From Candidatus Raymondbacteria bacterium RIFOXYA2_FULL_49_16 (GTDB lineage: Bacteria > Fibrobacterota > OXYB2-FULL-49-7 > XYB2-FULL-49-35), in NCBI GenBank assembly GCA_001789205.1, contig MFYT01000095.1:1-43253 (forward strand): DNA of 43,253 bases, written 5' to 3'. Below are positions 36,100 through 43,253 of the stretch, one piece after another. Every line of letters starts with the position of its first letter. Position 1 is the first letter of the stretch. The position numbers and the translations under genes are program-made. The notes beneath the pieces were generated by a model. It did not search any database. It saw only the letters and a list, made by a program, of their open reading frames with translations, and was not told the origin of the DNA.

Positions 36100-36951
36100 T
36101 CACCCCCGTATCATTTCTTCGGTTTTCGCCAGTTCTTCGACCAAATAAATAAACAGCATCTGCACGTCGGCCTCAGATAGATTAAACATGTCAAAGATAT
36201 CTTTCTGAGCCGTGTACGAAAGCCCTCCCAGATCAAGACCAATACCCATCATAAGACAAATAACATCGCTGAGATACACATGATAGGCGAGTTTTTTACC
36301 TGAAAGCGCGCGTTCGGGTTCGTGATGGTGACGCACAGCGCTTATCATGTCCTGCGGAAAACCCCATCGTTCGAGTAGGCGCGCGCCTATTTCGCCGTGG
36401 CTGAACCCCATTATTTCCATCTCAGCTTGCGTAAAAGTAACTGTACCCAAGGCAAGTTTACTCAGGATTTCCGCGCGTTTGGTGCTCATATACGAATCGA
36501 GCAGGGTCTTGCCAACATCGTGCATGATGCAAGAGGTGAAAAGCGCCTCTTTATGCTCAAACTGTGTTTTTTCAGCCAGCTTTTGGGAAACCAGAGCGGT
36601 TGCAATGGAATGGCGCCACAATTCACCGCGTTTGAGGTCGTACCCTGTTCCCGCACTCTCGTAATACTGGGAACAGCTTTCAGCTATCACCATATTAATG
36701 AGCGTGTTGTTACCCAACCGGATAAGCGCTTCGCCTACCGTGCGCACATCCTCACCGCTCCTTTTATAATAGGCCGAATTGGCCATTCTGATGACCCGGA
36801 AAGTAAGCACCTCATCCAACTGCACCACAGCGATGATGTTTTTAATAGAGGGCTCGGGGTTGCGCATGACAGAAAGTATTTTCATGACAATTGAGGGCAA
36901 GGGCGGCACCTTCTCGATGTTTTGCAGGATTTTTTCAAGTACAGGGTTCAT
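36100..36951 (-). CDS. HDOD-domain signalling protein
   Basis: 283 aa from the ATG at 36951 (GAGGTG five bases upstream, and ATGA overlap with cheD); a GTG six bases earlier is possible. The HDOD domain spans about 10-210: 'VPPLPSIVMKILSVMRNPEP', 'VIRMANSAYYKRSGEDVRT', 'ALIRLGNNTLINMVIAES', and the HD-like 'IMHDVGKTLLDSYM'. HDOD proteins lack classic HD phosphohydrolase chemistry in most cases and often join chemotaxis or c-di-GMP circuits. Exact role unknown. Confidence 0.88.
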   Translation of the reverse strand: MNPVLEKILQNIEKVPPLPSIVMKILSVMRNPEPSIKNIIAVVQLDEVLTFRVIRMANSAYYKRSGEDVRTVGEALIRLGNNTLINMVIAESCSQYYESAGTGYDLKRGELWRHSIATALVSQKLAEKTQFEHKEALFTSCIMHDVGKTLLDSYMSTKRAEILSKLALGTVTFTQAEMEIMGFSHGEIGARLLERWGFPQDMISAVRHHHEPERALSGKKLAYHVYLSDVICLMMGIGLDLGGLSYTAQKDIFDMFNLSEADVQMLFIYLVEELAKTEEMIRG

Positions 36952-37433
36952 AACCACACCTCTTCCTTAACACCAGAATATCTGACACTCACACTCATCT
37001 CCGCAAGATTGAGCGTCATATTCCTGCTCAGGCTGCCGCCAACATCCTCGCCCCTAAGAATGAGATTGTAGCGCCAAAGAATGCGTTTGAGGGCCAGGTA
37101 GTTTTTTTTACCAATGGAGAAAGTACCGTTCGGATCCATGATATTGGAACCGCCCGCCGCCTTGATGGTCAACCGCCGTATTTCGCATCCGCACTTTTCC
37201 AATTTCCTCAACATGGAAGTGATTCCAGTGTCGGCGAACATGAAAGGGTTCTCGCTTGCCTTGCGTTCGTCAAGTTTCGAGTCGGGCAGCATATAATGCA
37301 GCAATCCGCCAGCACCTGCAACCGGGTCGAATACCGCAACACCGATACATGACCCCAATGCGTAGGTGATCAGACGATTGCCTGAATTCGACGCCTTCAT
37401 ATCAGCTATATTCACCACGAGGATGTCGTTCAT
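36948..37433 (-). CDS. cheD: chemoreceptor glutamine deamidase CheD
   Basis: 161 aa. The catalytic Cys29 ('LGSCIGVAVFD'), His46 ('GGLLHYMLPDS') and Thr23 ('LITYALG') line up with known CheD. 'IKAAGGSNIM' and 'GGSLSRNMTL' are family motifs. CheD deamidates receptor glutamines and interacts with CheC-type phosphatases; two CheX proteins lie nearby. Lies three bases after cheB and overlaps the HDOD gene by four bases. Confidence 0.93.
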   Translation of the reverse strand: MNDILVVNIADMKASNSGNRLITYALGSCIGVAVFDPVAGAGGLLHYMLPDSKLDERKASENPFMFADTGITSMLRKLEKCGCEIRRLTIKAAGGSNIMDPNGTFSIGKKNYLALKRILWRYNLILRGEDVGGSLSRNMTLNLAEMSVSVRYSGVKEEVWL

Positions 37434-37436
37434 GAC

Positions 37437-38498
37437 CTATTTCGCCTTTATTGAAATTTCCTGCGCTATCCTATCAAGGGACGTCAGCGAACCGCACGCG
37501 CCAATATCATAGGCGGCTTTAGGCATGCCCCACACAATACTTGTCGCCTCGTCTTGCACAATGGTGGCGGCGCCTGCTTGTTTCATCTCAAGAAGCCCGC
37601 GCGCGCCATCACTTCCCATACCAGTAAGAACGACGCCTACGGCGTTCTTGCCAGCGTATTCTGCGACAGACATGAAAAGCACATCAACAGACGGTCGAAC
37701 ATGACATACAGGGGGCCGCTGGTTTAGAGTAACGAAATACCGGGCGCCGCTGCGACGGAGAAGAATGTGGTAATTGCCCGGCGCGATAAGAAGCAATCCC
37801 TGCCGCAGTGAATCGCCCTCCTCCGCCTCTTTTACCTCCATATTGCTACTTTCATTAAGACTTTCCGCATACGTTCTTGTAAAAATAGGCGGCATGTGTT
37901 GGACCAGAATCATGGGAGGACCGTCAGCGGGAAGTTGCGAAAGAATTGTACGGAACGTCTGTGTGCCGCCTGTACTGGCGCCAATCGCAACGATCTTATC
38001 AGTTGTTTCCACCATAGCCTTCGATGAGGCTTTCTTCTTCCCGGCGGATGAAAGCGTGCCTGAAATACCTGCGACCGCACGCCGGGCCTCCATGTTTGTC
38101 TTGGCCGCGATCTTGATCTTCTCCGCTATGAGCATCACCTGCGTTTCAATGCTTTGGCCGAATGCGGAATCGGGTTTTGAAATGACCTCAAGCGCCCCTA
38201 GTTCCAAGGCTTTGAAATACGATGCGCTGCCTTCCGGGGCAAGAGAACTGATCACAATCACAGGGATCGGATAATACATCATCAGCTTTTCGAGAAATGT
38301 AAGTCCGTCCATACGCGGCATCTCAATATCCAACGTAACAACGTCTGGTTTTAGGACGAGAATTTTATCGCGCGCAATGAAAGGATCCAAGGCTGTACCC
38401 ACTATCTCGATACCGGGTACAGCCCCCAAGCGCTGCGCAAGAGCCGACCGGACCACTGCTGAATCGTCAATGATAAGGACTTTAACGTTATCCGCCAT
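37437..38498 (-). CDS. cheB: chemotaxis response regulator methylesterase CheB
   Basis: 353 aa from the ATG at 38498 (TAGGAG just upstream, the TAG being the cheA stop); a longer frame to 38552 lies inside cheA. Receiver with phospho-Asp57 ('VVTLDIEMPRMDG'), linker, and the methylesterase domain with the Ser-His-Asp triad in 'IGASTGGTQTF', 'LVQHMPPIFTRTYAE' and 'GMGSDGARGL'. It removes methyl groups from receptors and can deamidate them. Ends in TAG. cheR is not in the window. Confidence 0.96.
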   Translation of the reverse strand: MADNVKVLIIDDSAVVRSALAQRLGAVPGIEIVGTALDPFIARDKILVLKPDVVTLDIEMPRMDGLTFLEKLMMYYPIPVIVISSLAPEGSASYFKALELGALEVISKPDSAFGQSIETQVMLIAEKIKIAAKTNMEARRAVAGISGTLSSAGKKKASSKAMVETTDKIVAIGASTGGTQTFRTILSQLPADGPPMILVQHMPPIFTRTYAESLNESSNMEVKEAEEGDSLRQGLLLIAPGNYHILLRRSGARYFVTLNQRPPVCHVRPSVDVLFMSVAEYAGKNAVGVVLTGMGSDGARGLLEMKQAGAATIVQDEATSIVWGMPKAAYDIGACGSLTSLDRIAQEISIKAK

Positions 38499-38505
38499 AC
38501 CGCTC

Positions 38506-40311
38506 CTATTCCAGTTTCTCCACATCAACGACCATGGCGACTCTCCCATCACCCATAATGGCCCCTCCCATAAAGAGGTTGGTCTCCATAGTTATGCCCA
38601 TGATTTTTTTTAGTACAATCTGCTGCACACCGATAATCATGTCTACGCACACTACTTTTTTCGCCCTTTTCCGGTTTAGCACAATGCCGATGCCGGCTCT
38701 ATCGGCGTTATTGTCCGCAATGCATTCCCGTTTAAATATATCGTCGATCTCCATCAGGGGAATAAATTCCCCCCGCCGCGCAACACACCGGCCTTTTCCG
38801 CCGACCAATGTGCAATCCTGAGGCAGTATCTGAAATGTTTCCTGGATCGTTTCAAGAGGAAACGCGTAATACTCGGTACCGGCCATGACCACGAATCCAT
38901 CAATGATCTGCGTATAAATGCTTTCCGGCAAGGTAATAGTGAACTCCGTGCCCATATCCGGCTGGCTGTTCAGCGAGAGTTTGCCTCCAGCCGCCTCAAT
39001 CGAGCGTTTGACTACATCCATGCCCACCCCTCTGCCTGAAACGTCTGTCACCGTATCCGAAGTAGACAGTCCTGAGATAAAGATAAGCTCTTTGATGTCT
39101 TCTTCGGTAACGGCCAAATCGTTCTTAAGCAGTCCCATTGAGACCGCCTTTGTGCGTATAGCCTCATAATTCAATCCTTTTCCATCGTCCGTGATTACCA
39201 AGGCGATTGTACCGCGTTTTTCCACGACGCTAACCGTTATTTTTCCGGTCCTGCTTTTGCCTTTCTTCTCCCGGACATCAGGCATCTCGATGCCATGGTC
39301 AGCAGCGTTCCTCACCATATGGATAAAAGGAGCTTCCAGCGTCTCCATCAGGCTTTTATCGATTTTCACCTCTTCACCGGTGATCTCCACCTCAATATAT
39401 TTGCCATGGGCGTTTCCGATATCCCGGATAATACGGGGCGCTTTTTGCAGTAAAGATTTGATAGGCATTTTACGGATTTCCATAATGCTTTTCTGGAGGT
39501 TGTACGACAACGTCCGGAACAAACTGTTTGCGTTACGGAAATCAGCGACAATTTTCACATGTTCAGCGCAATCCGATATCCGTTTCTGAAGATGTTCGAA
39601 CATTTCGCGAACAATGACCAATTCGCCGACATATGCGAGAAATCCATCAATGCTTTCCTCCGGCACACGCATTGTTTTTTTATCATTCGCGGCAGACTGC
39701 AGTTTTGGCGATTGCGGCGAAGCTTCCAGCGGCCGTACTTCAGCTGGCGCTTCTTTTTGCCCTATAAAGCCGGAAAACGCGGCTTTCATGTCTTGCATAA
39801 CAGCATCGAGGTCGGTCAGATCAACTCCGTCTCTATCCACGAGGTTTTGCCGCACAATCGCAAGCCTGTTAACAAAATCCAGACCAGAACGCGCGGCATC
39901 TTTTACCACAAAATGCTGCGCACCCAAGACCTTTTCCAGCAATGCCTCAAATGCGGGTCTGTCCGCCACTTCCGGCTGGCCCTGCCTGACACGCCGCAGT
40001 ATGGCCTGCAGTTCGTCCAGCCCTTTCAGGACAATATCTATCACGGGGTGTGAAGGGAAAAGCTTTTCTTTACGGAGCAAGTCCAGCACATCTTCTATCC
40101 GGTGCGCCAGGGCCTTGGTGTCCATAAGGCCGAAATAGGTGGAATTTCCTTTGATCGAATGGACCGGCCGGAAAATTGCGTTTACAAGCTCCTTATCGCC
40201 GGTGGACGACTCAAGGCCCACGACCATAGTATCGATGCTCCGCAGCACATCGACCGACTCGTCGACAAACTCCAGAAGCAGATCATGATCGAATTCAAAC
40301 GCGTTTTCCAT
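38506..40311 (-). CDS. cheA: chemotaxis histidine kinase CheA
   Basis: A 601-aa kinase of the chemotaxis signalling array: Hpt with phospho-His51 ('FRPVHSIKGNSTYFGL'), a linker without an obvious CheY-binding P2 domain, dimerisation helices about 215-270, HATPase with 'MVRNAADHGIEMPDV', 'DDGKGLNYEA' and 'GRGVGMDVVKRSI', then a CheW-like domain about 460-600. Shorter than E. coli CheA (654), consistent with no P2. AAGGA precedes the ATG; ends in TAG. It phosphorylates CheB and CheY-type receivers. Confidence 0.95.
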   Translation of the reverse strand: MENAFEFDHDLLLEFVDESVDVLRSIDTMVVGLESSTGDKELVNAIFRPVHSIKGNSTYFGLMDTKALAHRIEDVLDLLRKEKLFPSHPVIDIVLKGLDELQAILRRVRQGQPEVADRPAFEALLEKVLGAQHFVVKDAARSGLDFVNRLAIVRQNLVDRDGVDLTDLDAVMQDMKAAFSGFIGQKEAPAEVRPLEASPQSPKLQSAANDKKTMRVPEESIDGFLAYVGELVIVREMFEHLQKRISDCAEHVKIVADFRNANSLFRTLSYNLQKSIMEIRKMPIKSLLQKAPRIIRDIGNAHGKYIEVEITGEEVKIDKSLMETLEAPFIHMVRNAADHGIEMPDVREKKGKSRTGKITVSVVEKRGTIALVITDDGKGLNYEAIRTKAVSMGLLKNDLAVTEEDIKELIFISGLSTSDTVTDVSGRGVGMDVVKRSIEAAGGKLSLNSQPDMGTEFTITLPESIYTQIIDGFVVMAGTEYYAFPLETIQETFQILPQDCTLVGGKGRCVARRGEFIPLMEIDDIFKRECIADNNADRAGIGIVLNRKRAKKVVCVDMIIGVQQIVLKKIMGITMETNLFMGGAIMGDGRVAMVVDVEKLE

Positions 40312-41998: not shown

Positions 41999-42391
41999 TT
42001 AAACCAAGCCGAGTTTCTTTATTTCCTGAACTAGCTTTTCCTGCTGGACAGGTTTTACTATATACGCTTCACACCCTTCCTGGAAAGCTGAAAATATCTC
42101 TTCCTTGTCGCTACATCCCGTGATCATGACTACTTTCACACCATCAAGCCCTTCAATGCCCTGTTTCTTTTCAATAGACCGGATTCGTTGCAGCGTCTCC
42201 CGTCCGTCCATTTCCGGCATCAAGATGTCCAAACAGATTACATGATACGGTCTTCGCTCCTCATGGGCCAGACAGAAAGCTTCAATCGCCTCCTTTCCGT
42301 TGACCGCAATGTCGCACTGCCCAAACGCTGCCATAATCTTCATTAATATTTTTCTGCTGGTGAATTCGTCTTCCACGATCAGTGTTCTCAT
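41999..42391 (-). CDS. single-domain response regulator
   Basis: 130-aa receiver: 'RTLIVEDEFTSRKIL', phospho-Asp55 in 'VICLDILMPEMDG', Thr in 'VMITGCSDKEEI', Lys in 'YIVKPVQQEKL'. No output domain. Thirteen bases before the receiver-kinase gene and 35 bases after the receiver-Hpt exon, which could pass phosphate to it (inference). Confidence 0.87.
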   Translation of the reverse strand: MRTLIVEDEFTSRKILMKIMAAFGQCDIAVNGKEAIEAFCLAHEERRPYHVICLDILMPEMDGRETLQRIRSIEKKQGIEGLDGVKVVMITGCSDKEEIFSAFQEGCEAYIVKPVQQEKLVQEIKKLGLV

Positions 42392-42426: not shown

Positions 42427-43164
42427 TTACAACTCCGCCCGTATAACAGCGGCGAACTCTTCAATGGCTCCGGACAAATCAGCAAGCGCCTTTTCAATGC
42501 CGTCACGTGCCTGTGAGCGGCAGAGCAATTCAAAATGCGCCGCATGCTCCTTCGCGATAGTGGCGCCAAGGTTGGCAAGCGCCCCTTTTAATGAATGCGT
42601 CTCGTTCGCCGCTTTCACAAACTCGTCACTTTTTAAAGCAGTTCGGATAGCGTCCATACGAAGCGGGTAATCCTGTAAAAACAGCTCAAGGAGTTCTTTC
42701 AGCAACAAGACGTCTCCATCAATGTTTTTCATAATCGCGTCTTTATCGAATATAGCCTTGTTCAACCGCAATGGAGACAAGGTTTCTCGATATCTTTTTA
42801 TATGCGGCTCAAGTACCGCCATTAATTTCTGGAGATTATACGGCTTTGGAAGACAGCCGTCCATTCCAACGTAACTGTATTTATCCAGGTCCTCTGAAAT
42901 GATATCACCGCTTAAAGCAACCACTGGTATCCGCTGTTTGGGCAAGGGGAGATGCCTGATCTCCCAGACTGCGCCAAATCCATCGAGAACAGGCATCTGA
43001 ATATCCATGAGTACTGCATCATAATCGCCGTTTTTAATTTCTTCAACCGCCTGCCTGCCGTCGATGACTACCACGCCGTTCCAACCCTTTTGTTTTAGAA
43101 GCGCCAGAAGCAATGACCCATTGACAGGATTGTCTTCCGCCACGAGTATTGTACAGGCGGCAAT
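42427..43164 (-). CDS. receiver-Hpt 3' exon of a gene interrupted by a group II intron
   Basis: The C-terminal part of a longer protein. Coding begins with codons for 'IAACTILVAEDNPVNG' right after the inferred intron end. Receiver: 'LVAEDNPVN', phospho-Asp in 'AVLMDIQMPVLDGFG', Lys in 'CLPKPYNLQ'. A C-terminal Hpt domain has its phospho-His in 'NETHSLKGALANLGA'. The spelling 'ILVAEDNPVN' is typical of receivers inside hybrid kinases (BarA-like order kinase-receiver-Hpt). The 5' exon lies beyond the window. A GTG at 43143 could serve as a start but lies within the first receiver strand, so would give a broken domain. Confidence 0.75.
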   Translation of the reverse strand: MAACTILVAEDNPVNGSLLLALLKQKGWNGVVVIDGRQAVEEIKNGDYDAVLMDIQMPVLDGFGAVWEIRHLPLPKQRIPVVALSGDIISEDLDKYSYVGMDGCLPKPYNLQKLMAVLEPHIKRYRETLSPLRLNKAIFDKDAIMKNIDGDVLLLKELLELFLQDYPLRMDAIRTALKSDEFVKAANETHSLKGALANLGATIAKEHAAHFELLCRSQARDGIEKALADLSGAIEEFAAVIRAEL

Positions 43165-43253
43165 GTTGAGTAGACCGGGCAGTTGCCTGCCCAGCCCCTC
43201 GCGGAACCGTACGAGCAGCTTTCCCGCATACGGCTCTTCATTCGGTCTTCGGG
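43165..43253 (-). mobile_element. 3' end of a group II intron (domains V and VI)
   Basis: Domain V: 33 bases (43236-43204) from GAGCCGTATGCGGGAAAG to CTCGTACGGTTC, with the AGC triad, eight-pair lower stem GAGCCGTA / TACGGTTC, two-base bulge and GAAA-type loop. Domain VI: 43200-43168, a 14-pair stem (GAGGGGCTGGGCAG / CTGCCCGGTCT-A-CTC) with a GCAA tetraloop and a single bulged A at 43171, seven bases from the inferred 3' end (...CTCAAC). This is the classical branch-point geometry. The intron body, any reverse transcriptase gene and the 5' splice site lie beyond the window. Confidence 0.85.

What the first reader, a model, noticed from the sequence alone, without database searches (positions are those of the whole stretch)
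43165..43253. Group II intron inserted into a receiver-Hpt (probable hybrid kinase) gene
The last bases on the minus strand fold as domain V (AGC triad, GAGCCGTA/TACGGTTC stem) and a perfect domain VI with one bulged A seven bases from an AC end. Right after it the frame resumes with the first strand of a receiver domain ('ILVAEDNPVN'). Bacterial group II introns usually sit outside genes or in mobile elements; one in a signalling gene at the head of a chemotaxis operon would make this operon depend on splicing, or would have destroyed the gene.
Basis: partly seen in the sequence, partly recalled or inferred. Interest (0 to 1): 0.8.

Follow-up and report, generated by a model that had tools for sequence, protein, structure and literature searches.

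The report
Mobile intron parked at start codons
The end of this contig is the tail of a self-splicing mobile intron that sits directly behind the start codon of a chemotaxis-operon gene; the same and related introns sit behind the start codons of about two dozen genes in this uncultured bacterium and its relatives, and several carry a spare ribosome-binding site and start codon of their own, so the host gene might be read with or without splicing.

Summary
Observation confirmed. Window 43238-43165 (-) is domain V+VI of a group II intron (Rfam RF00029, E 6e-7). The window is a whole contig that breaks inside a multicopy intron: the same 3' end, 100% identical, lies at eight places. The intron's 5' end (ATG|GTTAACCTGG) was found at six other contig ends. 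Two full-length relatives (~680 nt, no reverse transcriptase, Rfam domain I E 1.6e-18 and 1e-17) join both ends in one element. The interpretation needs correcting: this is not a hybrid kinase. All six 5' exons end exactly at a start codon, and the window's best partner (contig C85) carries cheA-cheW-mcp-cheR. Joining the exons gives a complete stand-alone receiver-Hpt protein (MIAACTILVAEDNPVN..., 246 aa) whose ATG overlaps the cheR stop codon (ATGA). A second, related intron family in this and other genomes of the phylum sits at ATGA| of htpG, uxaC and many secreted-protein genes. In both families the exon-binding loop EBS1 contains CAU (anti-start codon), and members carry an internal ribosome-binding site and ATG in frame with the downstream gene. 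Best reading: start-codon-targeting group II introns with a built-in replacement start. No RNA data exist here. The nearest precedent, C. tetani C.te.I1, is a single immobile locus.

The parts
43204..43236 (-). Group II intron domain V
   Evidence: Rfam RF00029, 49.7 bits, E 6.3e-7
43165..43200 (-). Group II intron domain VI; bulged branch-point A at 43171; intron ends ..CTACTCAAC at 43165
   Evidence: RF00029 and fold; same end in eight copies
43237..43253 (-). Intron sequence just upstream of domain V, where the contig breaks; frame open through domains V-VI into the 3' exon (RRPNEEPYAGKLLVRFREGLGRQLPGLLN)
   Evidence: Contig end in a multicopy repeat; open frame
42427..43164 (-). 3' exon: receiver-Hpt gene lacking only its start codon (245 residues after the ATG; stop included)
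   Evidence: Pfam Response_reg and Hpt; exon joining
41999..42391 (-). Receiver-domain protein, next gene of the operon
   Evidence: Pfam Response_reg
38506..40311 (-). cheA in the same operon
   Evidence: Pfam Hpt, H-kinase_dim, HATPase_c, CheW
37437..38552 (-). cheB in the same operon
   Evidence: Pfam CheB_methylest
36948..37433 (-). cheD in the same operon
   Evidence: Pfam CheD

Best explanation
The feature is the 3' end of one copy of a multicopy group II intron (about 680 nt and without a reverse transcriptase in its relatives) that reverse-splices into DNA directly behind start codons. Its EBS1 loop contains CAU..., the complement of ..AUG, so start codons are its target. In the window it lies between codon 1 and codon 2 of a stand-alone receiver-Hpt gene in a chemotaxis operon, behind cheR. 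Splicing would rejoin ATG with ATTGCC..., restoring both the receiver-Hpt start and the overlapping cheR stop. Related copies carry a ribosome-binding site and ATG just upstream of domain V (this family) or inside domain VI (family X), in frame with the 3' exon. Unspliced RNA would therefore give the same protein with a short N-terminal extension, which would make insertion at start codons nearly harmless. Shown by sequence: intron identity, both ends, start-codon placement, exon phase, internal starts in relatives. Inferred: splicing, mobility in trans by another intron's reverse transcriptase, use of the internal start, and the C85 link.
For: Intron identity: RF00029; full-length relatives G061:C81 and G025:C320 with domain I (RF02005, E 1.6e-18 and 1e-17) and 74% identity to each other over ~690 aligned positions. 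Start codons: 6/6 5' ends are ..ATG|; of the ten 5' exons measured (both families), 8/10 have a ribosome-binding site match of at least 4 nt against 13.9% of background ATGs, P 5e-6. Exons: 6/8 3' exons are open for 173-507 codons in phase 0, among them FolE2, a GDSL lipase and secreted proteins. Family X: 10 of 11 3' exons in G000 and 5 of 6 in G035 continue in the phase of ATGA| with a frame over 65 codons (in G000 some frames reach the end of the 300-bp stretch read); UxaC residue 2 aligns to profile position 3, HtpG residue 2 to position 3. Complete family X copies with both exons: G000:C60 and G011:C5. Target pairing read from the sequences: EBS1 CGAAAU with exon ATTTCG (6/6) in G025, UCAUAU with GTATGA in C60, CAUUUU with ..AATG in G061. 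Operon link: C85 carries cheA-cheW-mcp-cheR and joins with an ATGA overlap. Internal start: SD-ATG with an open frame in C84 and G061, TAA stop in the G025 copies; in family X the ATG-to-splice distance is 13 or 16 nt, both in phase with ATGA|.
Against: No RNA data. The interior of the window's own copy is not in the assembly, so its length, lack of a reverse transcriptase, EBS1 and internal start are taken from relatives. The 5' end GUUAAC departs from GUGYG. Two of eight 3' exons are not start-codon sites (C66 lies upstream of a gene, C102 is out of phase). Only six 5' ends match eight 3' ends, so the C85 partner is not proven. The G061 copy sits at an ATG without a clear ribosome-binding site and without a clear gene behind it. 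An SD-ATG upstream of domain V was visible in only two copies of this family.
Confidence: 0.72

Rival explanations
1. One reading: the intron interrupts the middle of a hybrid histidine kinase gene whose kinase part lies upstream.
For: The receiver-Hpt part most resembles C-terminal parts of hybrid kinases such as BarA and of long reading frames in relatives.
Against: All six 5' exons of this intron end at start codons and none is a kinase frame; the operon-matched C85 ends in cheR and the joined gene is complete.
Confidence: 0.07
2. The start-codon pattern is plain site-specific homing: the intron recognises ATG in its IBS1, start codons are tolerated sites and others are purged, and the internal ribosome-binding sites and open frames are by-products of domain IV/VI structure without translational use.
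For: EBS1 and IBS1 pair at ATG; C102 shows insertion away from a start codon; in family X the purine-rich stretch is part of the domain VI stem.
Against: Family X keeps AAGGA and ATG at a frame-preserving distance (13 or 16 nt) across divergent domain VI sequences, and in the window's family the open frame with SD-ATG is found in start-codon members and not in the G025 copies. These are few independent comparisons.
Confidence: 0.35
3. The copies are dead insertions that have silenced the genes, with no splicing.
For: No RNA evidence; one relative (G011:C5) has a degenerate reverse transcriptase.
Against: Domains V-VI are 100% identical in all copies; targets include an htpG copy in G035; 3' exons stay open.
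Confidence: 0.1
4. C. tetani-type arrangement: one intron body with several domain V-VI/exon cassettes giving alternative splicing or trans-splicing.
For: More 3' ends (8) than 5' ends (6) of this family, and more (11) than (5) of family X, were found.
Against: The 3' ends lie on unrelated contigs, mostly after a gene start; complete single-intron copies exist (G061, G011); missing ends are expected in a draft assembly.
Confidence: 0.08

Closest known systems
C.te.I1, ORF-less group II intron of Clostridium tetani (PMC3919590)
   Same: No reverse transcriptase; domains V-VI contain start codons of the downstream reading frames, so unspliced and spliced RNA encode different proteins.
   Different: C.te.I1 is one locus of surface-layer genes with four domain V-VI copies, thought to have lost mobility, spliced 8 nt upstream of GUGCG. 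Here there are dispersed copies at unrelated start codons.
ORF-less TeI3 introns of Thermosynechococcus elongatus (PMC2882425)
   Same: Multicopy introns without a reverse transcriptase, spread through EBS/IBS pairing and a reverse transcriptase acting in trans; one family sits between two start codons of the intron-encoded protein gene.
   Different: Mostly outside host genes; no start-codon targeting of unrelated host genes and no replacement start in the passages read.
Bacterial class C group II introns
   Same: Also multiply by using a site class where insertion does little harm (behind transcription terminators; PMC8919778).
   Different: The site class here is the start codon, apparently recognised by EBS1 pairing.
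Azotobacter group II intron at the groEL termination codon (recalled from memory, not read here)
   Same: Insertion at the edge of a coding sequence of a chaperone gene.
   Different: Stop codon, single gene.

Membership tests
Group II intron | Domain V with catalytic triad and domain VI with bulged A | tested here: met
   RF00029 at 43165-43238, E 6.3e-7; bulged A at 43171
Group II intron | Domain I with EBS1 pairing to the 5' exon | tested here: met
   Met in full-length relatives (RF02005 E 1.6e-18, 1e-17; EBS1-IBS1 6/6 in G025); the window's own domain I is not assembled
Group II intron | 5' end GUGYG and 3' end AY | tested here: inconclusive
   3' end AC met; 5' end is GUUAAC in this family (GUGCG in family X)
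Group II intron | Splicing in vivo or in vitro | not testable with these tools
   No RNA data
Mobile retroelement form with its own reverse transcriptase | Intron-encoded reverse transcriptase in domain IV | tested here: inconclusive
   Absent in the ~680-nt relatives; interior of the window copy unknown; reverse transcriptases are present elsewhere in the genome
ORF-less intron mobilised in trans (T. elongatus type) | Multiple dispersed near-identical copies without a reverse transcriptase | tested here: inconclusive
   Eight identical 3' ends and six 5' ends; lack of a reverse transcriptase shown only in relatives
C.te.I1-type alternatively splicing intron | Several domain V-VI copies behind one intron body at one locus | tested here: not met
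   Single domain V-VI in the full-length copy G061:C81; 3' ends dispersed over unrelated contigs
Bacterial class C intron | Insertion directly behind a transcription terminator | tested here: not met
   5' exons end at a start codon, most with a ribosome-binding site

The most novel reading that the evidence does not exclude
Two related group II intron families have evolved an EBS1 that is an anti-start-codon (CAU...) and a built-in replacement start (ribosome-binding site plus AUG upstream of domain V or in domain VI, kept in the right frame for their insertion phase), so that they can settle in the start codons of many host genes and yield two N-terminal protein forms, spliced and unspliced.
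Probability: 0.45. Interest if true: 0.85.

Novelty: new variant of a known kind. Interest (0 to 1): 0.7.

Why it matters
A review describes most bacterial group II introns as lying outside housekeeping genes, and introns without a reverse transcriptase as rare in bacteria (PMC4424553). An intron lineage that targets start codons and brings its own start would be a new way for introns to live inside many protein genes, including signalling and chaperone genes, with splicing optional. That bears on how introns first became tolerated in genes and on how N-terminal protein variants can arise in bacteria. It also matters for annotation: gene callers may start these genes too late (here GTG at 43143) or extend them through intron RNA.

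Tried and rejected
First guess that family F1 (ATGA|GTGCGTC) was the window intron's 5' end: rejected by phase and by the full-length relatives. Tail of a hybrid kinase: rejected. Interior of the intron in the same genome: not found. Same intron core in viral contigs: none; in genome contigs only the two relatives already found. Receiver-Hpt next to cheR in relatives: none among the short loci held. Papers: no description of start-codon-targeting group II introns found in this library; absence there is not proof.

Full report
CHECK. The last 74 bases of domain V-VI on the minus strand of the window match Rfam RF00029 over its whole length (43238-43165, 49.7 bits, E 6.3e-7). Domain VI folds as a perfect hairpin with one bulged A, seven bases from the 3' end.

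WHY THE WINDOW ENDS HERE. The window is contig C95 of a 5.43-Mb, 112-contig genome. Its last 89 bases recur at seven other places, 100% identical over the part assembled and at or near contig ends: a multicopy element broke the assembly. The interior is absent from the assembly (this was sought with a relative's interior, so a diverged copy could be missed). I fetched and clustered most contig ends.

THE OTHER END. Six contig ends (C29, C85, C86, C87, C92, C99) carry, reading outward..ATG|GTTAACCTGGCAATGAGTCATC... Searching the phylum (168 genomes) with this end and with the window's 3' end gave two genomes in which both lie on one strand ~680 nt apart: G061:C81:346-1025 and G025:C320:7-683. 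A pattern scan returned contigs of the same lengths, titled Chitinivibrionales bacterium RBin_299 and Fibrobacter sp. AS06rmzACSIP_609. Both match group-II-D1D4-6 (RF02005, E 1.6e-18 and 1e-17) and RF00029. An element of this size has no room for a reverse transcriptase. In G025 the EBS1 loop reads CGAAAU and all four 5' exons end in ATTTCG (6/6 pairs); in G061 it reads CAUUUU and the exon ends ..AATG. The 5' end GUUAAC departs from GUGYG.

START CODONS. All six 5' exons in the window's genome end at an ATG, most with a ribosome-binding site. Over the ten 5' exons measured (this family and family X), 8/10 have at least a 4-nt match against 13.9% of background ATGs (binomial P 5e-6). Of the eight 3' exons, six continue in phase 0 for 173-507 codons: receiver-Hpt (window), FolE2 (NCBIfam residue 6 to profile 13; below the curated cut-off), a GDSL lipase/CBM96 protein, two proteins with a secretion tail and one protein without a family match. 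C66 lies upstream of a gene and C102 is out of phase.

THE WINDOW'S GENE. C85 carries cheA-cheW-mcp-cheR up to the intron (Pfam), and the window continues with receiver-Hpt, regulators, cheA, cheB, cheD. Joining C85's 5' exon to the window's 3' exon gives GGAGTCTAAATG^ATTGCC: CheR ends ..SIYAKSMESK* (289 aa) with its TGA overlapping the ATG of a 246-aa receiver-Hpt protein. With the intron in place CheR would instead run five codons further (WLTWQ). Because every 3' exon of this family begins with A, the TGA overlap alone does not identify the partner; the link rests on operon content. Two 5' ends are missing.

A SECOND FAMILY. Family X (3' end ..TACTCGAC|) starts GTGCG behind ATGA. In the window's genome 10 of 11 3' exons continue in that phase (C42 only for 30 codons; some frames reach the end of the 300-bp stretch read), for example uxaC (NCBIfam residue 2 to profile 3; MNKGFITENFLLRTKTAQKL) and signal peptides such as MKKAFYFILVSCG. 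In G035 five of six do, among them htpG (residue 2 to profile 3), a glycosyltransferase-like protein and lipoprotein-like proteins. Contig C60 holds a complete copy with both exons: GGGAGGAATGTATGA|GTGCGCC.....CGAC|AAATCACGAAC, giving a lipoprotein-like MKITNIVIMAALLTAAGLLMSC; domain I matches RF02005 at E 3.7e-37, and the EBS1 loop UCAUAU pairs with GTATGA (one G-U). G011:C5 is another complete copy, with a broken reverse transcriptase. G042:C119 carries a reverse-transcriptase-like reading frame (read by eye; not scanned).

REPLACEMENT START. In family X, domain VI itself holds AAGGA..ATG, with 13 or 16 nt from the ATG to the splice site, both in phase with ATGA|. In the window's family, C84 (AGGAGGAACCT ATG) and G061 (ATAGGAGCAATGTGAATT ATG) have it just upstream of domain V, open through V-VI in phase 0, whereas the G025 copies, which sit at ATTTCG sites, are closed by a TAA. 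The start therefore goes with start-codon targeting, on few independent comparisons.

KNOWN RELATIVES. C.te.I1 of C. tetani has start codons of downstream frames in domains V-VI but is one locus (PMC3919590). ORF-less T. elongatus introns spread with a reverse transcriptase in trans (PMC2882425). A review calls ORF-less introns rare in bacteria and most bacterial introns located outside housekeeping genes (PMC4424553). I found no description of start-codon targeting with a replacement start.

LIMITS. No RNA evidence; the window copy's interior is unknown; the C85-C95 link is not proven; which reverse transcriptase would move these introns is unknown.

Noticed in passing
L202 (G000:C60) 193-1716: Complete family X intron with a second group II-like element (RF02003, E 3.6e-6, below the gathering score) apparently lying inside its domain V, i.e. 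a possible twintron; its 3' end is a 12-nt direct repeat giving two possible in-frame 3' splice sites.
   Followed up: partly
G000:C39 start, C48 start; C40 end, C35 start: A third intron family: 3' end CCCAAT| and, probably, 5' end ATG|GTGCGCCAAGAAG; C39's exon joined to ATG would read MRKALIVLGVFTLNMCAFAQ.
   Followed up: partly
L260 (G035:C8): A family X intron lies behind the start codon of htpG (Hsp90).
   Followed up: partly
window 42427-43143: A gene caller would start the receiver-Hpt gene at GTG 43143 or run it through intron RNA; the likely first codon is on another contig.
   Followed up: yes
G000:C34:5818 and 6591; C1:3698; C107:2636: Further group II introns or fragments of other families in the same genome.
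   Followed up: no
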